Source of the DNA: Pseudomonas sp. L5B5
GTDB taxonomy: Bacteria > Pseudomonadota > Gammaproteobacteria > Pseudomonadales > Pseudomonadaceae
Assembly (NCBI RefSeq): GCF_020520285.1
Contig: NZ_CP084742.1
Location: forward strand, 5,939,501-6,003,500
Length of the DNA stretch: 64,000 bases
Direction of reading: 5' to 3'
Under the pieces are notes generated by a model. It was not told the DNA's origin, searched no databases, and saw only the letters and a program-made list of their open reading frames with translations. Of this stretch, positions 50,432 to 53,185 are shown in pieces. Numbering within the stretch: position 1 is the first letter of the stretch; every line of letters starts with the position of its first letter. Made by a program: the position numbers and the translations under genes.

Positions 50432-53185
<2,754 letters not shown>

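What the first reader, a model, noticed from the sequence alone, without database searches (positions are those of the whole stretch)
52391..52393. gacS carries an in-frame TAG at codon 265
The frame from GTG 53185 to 50432 is 917 codons with one TAG. Ignoring it, H294, D717 and H863 fall at the residue numbers established for the GacS phosphorelay, so the rest of the gene is intact and the stop is the only lesion. GAG to TAG is one base change. The predicted truncation keeps membrane, periplasmic and HAMP regions but no kinase. Spontaneous Gac loss is well known in fluorescent pseudomonads and abolishes most antibiotic, exoenzyme and siderophore-related output, so this may explain the phenotype of the isolate or be a laboratory-passage mutant.
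Basis: partly seen in the sequence, partly recalled or inferred. Interest (0 to 1): 0.92.

Follow-up and report, generated by a model that had tools for sequence, protein, structure and literature searches.

The report
Broken gacS paired with broken rsmA
A Pseudomonas genome has a premature stop in the master sensor gene gacS, as reported, but it also carries a frameshift in rsmA, the repressor that gacS normally counteracts, so it may be a natural partial bypass rather than a simple Gac-negative mutant.

Summary
The minus-strand gacS frame (53185 to 50432) has one in-frame TAG at codon 265, with H294, D717 and H863 as stated. The 80 best named relatives all read one sense residue there. The part after the stop is still under purifying selection, and none of 71 tRNAs is an amber suppressor. 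It is a recent gacS null allele in a P. protegens-group genome near P. piscis. Such alleles are ordinary: 7 of 398 Pseudomonas species genomes carry one in-frame gacS stop, at seven codons.

The stop is not the only lesion in the pathway. In the same genome, 2.5 kb left of the window, rsmA shifts frame after residue 39 of 62. RsmA is full length in 46 of 48 genomes checked, including 12 of 13 others with damaged or split gacS; G286 gave no RsmA. Among 199 genes compared with the nearest genome, only gacS was truly broken, though this screen missed rsmA. gacA and rsmE look intact. The likeliest reading is a partial Gac bypass with RsmE still repressing. No reads were available.

The parts
52391..52393 (-). 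in-frame TAG, codon 265 of gacS
   Evidence: sense residue in 80 of 80 named relatives
52394..53185 (-). gacS codons 1-264: membrane part, sCache_4 periplasmic domain, HAMP
50432..52390 (-). gacS codons 266-917 and stop: HisKA, HATPase_c, receiver, Hpt; downstream of the TAG
   Evidence: no further stop or frameshift
50432..52312 (-). first listed ORF for re-initiation after the TAG (ATG at codon 292, two codons before H294)
   Evidence: no clear ribosome site before it
49378..50391 (-). D-2-hydroxyacid (lactate) dehydrogenase-like gene downstream of gacS
   Evidence: all matches below the curated cut-offs
53233..54120 (+). response regulator ORF, divergent from gacS; the true start is probably further in
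   Evidence: best matches OmpR-type regulators, below cut-offs
54098..55480 (+). sensor histidine kinase next to the response regulator
   Evidence: below cut-offs
55532..56500 (+). cysM
   Evidence: above cut-off
57977..60220 (+). relA, used as control gene
   Evidence: (above cut-off)

Best explanation
The window holds a recent loss-of-function allele of gacS in a P. protegens-group bacterium. Shown: the stop, the loss of all kinase and relay domains from the truncated product, no further decay of the gene, no CUA tRNA, and a separate one-base frameshift in rsmA of the same chromosome. Inferred: without GacS, GacA is not phosphorylated, the sRNAs RsmX/Y/Z are not made, and RsmA plus RsmE would repress the Gac regulon. 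Loss of RsmA removes one of the two repressors, so the strain is a partial Gac bypass: outputs repressed mainly by RsmA or early in growth are relieved, those for which RsmE alone suffices stay off. The two lesions are most simply a primary and a second-site mutation in one pathway; which came first is not known.
For: gacS stop and domain loss. Post-stop part: dN/dS 0.037 against P. piscis, within 0.017-0.047 for six intact relatives against each other. All 71 tRNA places matched one by one to an ARAGORN call, none with a CUA anticodon. rsmA: 39 native residues, then 12 foreign ones; the native residues 38-62 follow in another frame, identical to the relative; the Pfam CsrA match shrinks from residues 1-53 to 1-40. 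RsmA full length (61 or 62 of 62) in 46 of 48 genomes, in two pieces here, not found in the fragmented G286. gacA above curated cut-off without stops, rsmY above cut-off, rsmE intact. 199 of 240 called genes of the matching stretch compared over 263 kb of this chromosome: only gacS truly broken. PMC13187841 (passages): in Pf-5 removal of both repressors restores output, either alone suffices to repress orfamide. PMC6519391 (passages, citing earlier work): RsmA roughly constant, RsmE low in exponential growth.
Against: No reads, so neither lesion is verified in the isolate. The rsmA lesion is a contraction of a short homopolymer, a usual form of sequencing error as well as of mutation. The gene screen that found no other lesion also failed to flag rsmA, so it is not complete for short genes. 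None of the other gacS-damaged genomes whose rsmA was found has an rsmA lesion (12 of 12), so rsmA loss is not a regular sequel. PMC3684763 (abstract and passages): in P. chlororaphis 30-84 only an rsmE mutation bypassed GacA for phenazines; PMC13187841 finds RsmE alone sufficient to repress; the bypass may be slight. The gacS part before the stop has dN/dS 0.12 against P. piscis, slightly above the 0.043-0.112 among relatives, which I do not interpret. rsmX, rsmZ, retS and ladS were not examined.
Confidence: 0.58

Rival explanations
1. The gacS stop is a real spontaneous null allele, and the rsmA frameshift is a homopolymer error of the assembly or an unrelated coincidence. The strain is then an ordinary Gac-negative mutant.
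For: One-base homopolymer contraction; 12 of 12 other gacS-damaged genomes with a readable rsmA keep it.
Against: 603 homopolymer runs of 5 or more lie in the 263 kb (coding or not) and no other compared gene there was truly frameshifted, though that screen is incomplete for short genes. RsmA is very conserved: identical over 62 of 62 residues in 34 of 48 genomes.
Confidence: 0.3
2. The gacS stop is itself a sequencing or assembly error and the gene is intact.
For: No reads are available; the rest of the gene is intact and under purifying selection.
Against: A substitution in a single-contig genome is not the usual residual error (recalled); gacS is known for spontaneous loss; a second lesion lies in the same pathway.
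Confidence: 0.08
3. The stop is bypassed: suppression or re-initiation gives a working GacS.
For: The reading frame continues intact; an ATG lies 27 codons on.
Against: No CUA tRNA. The ATG sits two codons before the phospho-acceptor histidine with no clear ribosome site; its product lacks the membrane part, HAMP and the start of HisKA.
Confidence: 0.04

Closest known systems
Spontaneous gacS/gacA mutants of fluorescent pseudomonads (for example those arising in P. protegens CHA0 on roots, PMC8262913, passages)
   Same: Single-site change in the GacS/GacA pair of a P. protegens-group bacterium
   Different: Here the allele is the one in a deposited single-contig genome, and rsmA is also broken
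P. fluorescens Pf0-1, a sequenced strain found to carry a gacA mutation (PMC3390384, passages)
   Same: Reference genome of a Gac-pathway mutant, natural or laboratory origin unresolved
   Different: gacA there, gacS here; no rsmA lesion is mentioned in the passages I saw
Laboratory rsmA rsmE mutants that bypass sRNA loss (Pf-5, PMC13187841, passages)
   Same: Loss of a CsrA-family repressor downstream of a lost Gac signal
   Different: Only RsmA is lost here; RsmE is intact, and nothing suggests that the lesions were engineered

Membership tests
GacS/BarA hybrid sensor kinase | sCache_4, HAMP, HisKA, HATPase_c, receiver and Hpt domains in this order | tested here: met
   all six found, but split by the stop between HAMP and HisKA; same order in intact P0116
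GacS/BarA hybrid sensor kinase | phosphorelay residues H294, D717, H863 | tested here: met
   (residue numbers themselves recalled)
Spontaneous Gac-negative (gacS null) mutant | gacS inactivated, gacA intact | tested here: met
Spontaneous Gac-negative (gacS null) mutant | no other lesion in the Gac/Rsm pathway | tested here: not met
   rsmA frameshift
Spontaneous Gac-negative (gacS null) mutant | loss of exoprotease, cyanide, antibiotic output | not testable with these tools
   needs the isolate
Full Gac bypass by loss of CsrA-family repressors | both RsmA and RsmE lost | tested here: not met
   RsmE intact; hence at most a partial bypass

The most novel reading that the evidence does not exclude
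The chromosome is a snapshot of natural second-site evolution in the Gac/Rsm cascade: gacS was lost and rsmA loss then partly restored output (or rsmA loss came first and gacS loss damped the resulting over-production), leaving RsmE as the only intact CsrA-family repressor seen and the regulon uncoupled from the Gac signal.
Probability: 0.42. Interest if true: 0.6.

Novelty: new variant of a known kind. Interest (0 to 1): 0.42.

Why it matters
Anyone using this genome to predict antibiotics, exoenzymes or biocontrol would assume a wild-type Gac system or, from the gacS stop alone, a Gac-negative one; both may be wrong. The survey also gives a base rate: about 2% of the sampled Pseudomonas species genomes (7 of 398) carry a gacS nonsense allele, each with one stop in an otherwise full-length frame, which fits repeated, recent and short-lived loss. 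If the rsmA lesion is real, the strain makes it testable whether Gac loss in nature is followed by second-site recovery of output.

Tried and rejected
Amber suppression: rejected; all 71 tRNA places were matched to an ARAGORN call (41 and 20, 10), none CUA. Genome-wide nonsense: the 13 other rows with 'stops inside' lie in 11 fetched regions; in 12 the stop is within about 13 residues of an end of the matched stretch, in one the stops are 31 and 43 residues in from its start, as natural gene ends and starts would give. Old pseudogene: rejected by dN/dS. Shared lesion in other isolates: none seen; among 114 proteins similar to the 264-residue piece the best is 91% identical, and the best match of the kinase half is 98% (P. 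piscis), but the database is clustered at 90%, so conspecific copies can be hidden. First background screens were spoiled by spurious antisense ORFs and replaced by one with a codon-composition filter. Its four flags in the G293-to-own direction are gacS, an ORF antisense to mazG by its coordinates, the upstream extension of a small gene intact in both, and an ORF antisense to a folE-like gene intact in both (the last two seen). The seven flags of the reverse direction mark stops or frame changes in the relative; I looked at one only. The screen did not flag rsmA, so it is not complete for short genes; the first 20 kb of the own stretch (L217) had no long match in the relative. A stretch chosen for rsmA in the relative (L216) was the wrong place and was replaced. 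relA control: no stop in any listed row (capped list) against 4 of 150 for gacS; taking 150 rows for relA, Fisher's test gives p = 0.12, so it is no firm difference, and the other relA rows were not seen. Survey rows not counted as stops: frame changes G128, G377, G295, G023; match from residue 93 only G389; split over contigs G067, G286; contig edge G223; no match G316 (78% complete) and G385 (no full relA match either).

Full report
What is there. The minus-strand frame from GTG 53185 to the TGA ending at 50432 is gacS: 917 codons with a single internal TAG at codon 265. H294, D717 and H863 are in place. The 264 residues before the stop match sCache_4 and HAMP, the ORF after it HisKA, HATPase_c, Response_reg and Hpt. 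Nearby lie a divergent two-component pair, cysM, rlmD, relA and mazG.

Where it comes from. The chromosome is one contig of 6,811,662 bases. Of 17 named loci compared, the nearest is P. piscis MC042, 90.6% identical over 12.8 kb; two P. protegens strains are at 86.5 and 86.6%. It is therefore a P. protegens-group bacterium, probably a species of its own. In the genome collection, which holds one genome a species, the nearest is G293, whose GacS is identical to the P. piscis protein P0116 over residues 2-917.

Is the stop a real lesion? The 80 best named relatives all have a sense codon, for one residue, at this column. Selection on the part after the stop is as strong as in intact relatives: dN/dS 0.037 against P. 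piscis; 0.017 to 0.047 among six relatives compared pairwise; the part before the stop has 0.12, against 0.043 to 0.112. There is no second gacS. All 71 tRNA places were matched to ARAGORN calls and none has a CUA anticodon. Re-initiation would start two codons before H294 without a clear ribosome site. So the allele is most likely null and recent. Reads were not available, so natural origin, passage and base-calling error cannot be told apart.

How unusual is it? With the intact P. piscis protein as query, 398 Pseudomonas species genomes were examined: 150 have a row and the other 248 were searched again. Seven carry exactly one in-frame stop in a full-length frame: at codons 52, 243, 265 (this one), 436, 534, 627 and 654. 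Four more have frame changes, one matches only from residue 93 and two are split over contigs; some of these may be assembly faults. relA, near gacS in this window, shows no stop in the rows listed, against 4 of 150 for gacS, a difference that is not significant on these numbers (p = 0.12 if 150 rows are taken). gacS nonsense alleles in deposited genomes are thus a known kind of thing at about 2%, each a single stop without further decay. Print agrees: gac mutations arose in several lines of an eight-cycle root experiment with P. protegens CHA0 (PMC8262913, passages), and the sequenced strain Pf0-1 has a gacA mutation of unresolved origin (PMC3390384, passages).

A CsrA-family scan of the chromosome gave a short match at C1:5937007, 2,494 bases left of the window and beside a serine tRNA. 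It is rsmA, out of frame after residue 39: 51 codons from the native start instead of 62. Against G293 the only indel in the coding part is a one-base contraction of a short homopolymer. The native C-terminal residues follow in another frame, identical to the relative. That third of the protein carries a strand and an arginine that hold RNA in CsrA proteins (recalled). rsmE is intact at C1:1933620, gacA at C1:135331, and rsmY is present. In 48 genomes chosen for the test (this one, 13 others with damaged or split gacS, 34 with intact gacS), RsmA is full length in 46, in two pieces here, and not found in the fragmented G286. Besides the broken rsmA this genome shows only RsmE at that cut-off.

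Chance or link? Of 240 genes called in the matching stretch of G293, 199 could be compared with 263 kb of this chromosome and only gacS was truly broken. By the rule of three the per-gene rate of other lesions is then under about 1.5%, and rsmA is a very short gene. There are 603 homopolymer runs of five or more in those 263 kb. The screen is imperfect: it did not flag rsmA, and part of the stretch had no counterpart. I looked at four pathway genes (gacA, rsmA, rsmE, rsmY), which must be allowed for. A link is likelier than not, not proven. Against it: of the 13 other gacS-damaged genomes, 12 have a readable rsmA and all 12 are intact.

Mechanism. GacS phosphorylates GacA, which switches on RsmX/Y/Z, which titrate RsmA and RsmE (established; also in the passages). 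Without GacS both repressors would stay active. With RsmA gone only RsmE remains. In Pf-5 removal of both repressors restores orfamide but either alone represses it (PMC13187841, passages); in 30-84 only rsmE loss bypassed GacA for phenazines (PMC3684763, abstract and passages); in NCIMB 10586 rsmA loss raised mupirocin (PMC11837529, passages); RsmE is reported low in exponential growth (PMC6519391, passages). The predicted phenotype is intermediate and output-specific. The opposite order is also possible: rsmA lost first, gacS loss then damping over-production; loss of both rsmA and rsmE slows growth in 2P24 (PMC7331252, abstract passage).

Novelty. The gacS stop alone is one more spontaneous gac allele. 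The pair is, as far as my searches go, undescribed: a search for rsmA, gacS, frameshift, spontaneous, suppressor and Pseudomonas together found no paper, and the titles listed (15 of 32 listed) and 70 are of laboratory mutants, regulation studies and evolution experiments. This covers only the held open library; a paper on spontaneous gac mutants of P. protegens that two texts cite was not held.

Noticed in passing
G000:C1:5937007-5937162 (L221:17008-17163), 2.5 kb left of the window: rsmA out of frame after residue 39; became part of the main finding.
   Followed up: yes
L009 / G377:C25 (P. protegens 14B2): gacS pieces lie in two frames with two frame changes; real lesion or draft error not decided. 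Its rsmA is intact.
   Followed up: partly
G128 (L203) and G067 (L207, L208): gacS changes frame near codons 219-231 in one genome and is cut by contig ends exactly between codons 224 and 225 in another; possibly a repeat or insertion site.
   Followed up: no
P0002-P0115: 114 public proteins of about GacS-N-terminal length; some on long contigs, such as P0024 (287 aa, named 'partial', 280 kb contig, Pseudomonas sp. JG-B), may be further natural truncations.
   Followed up: no
G206, G031, G098, G233, G365, G358: Six further species genomes with a single gacS nonsense codon, none sharing the position; the seven stops including this one are three TAA and four TAG, none TGA.
   Followed up: partly
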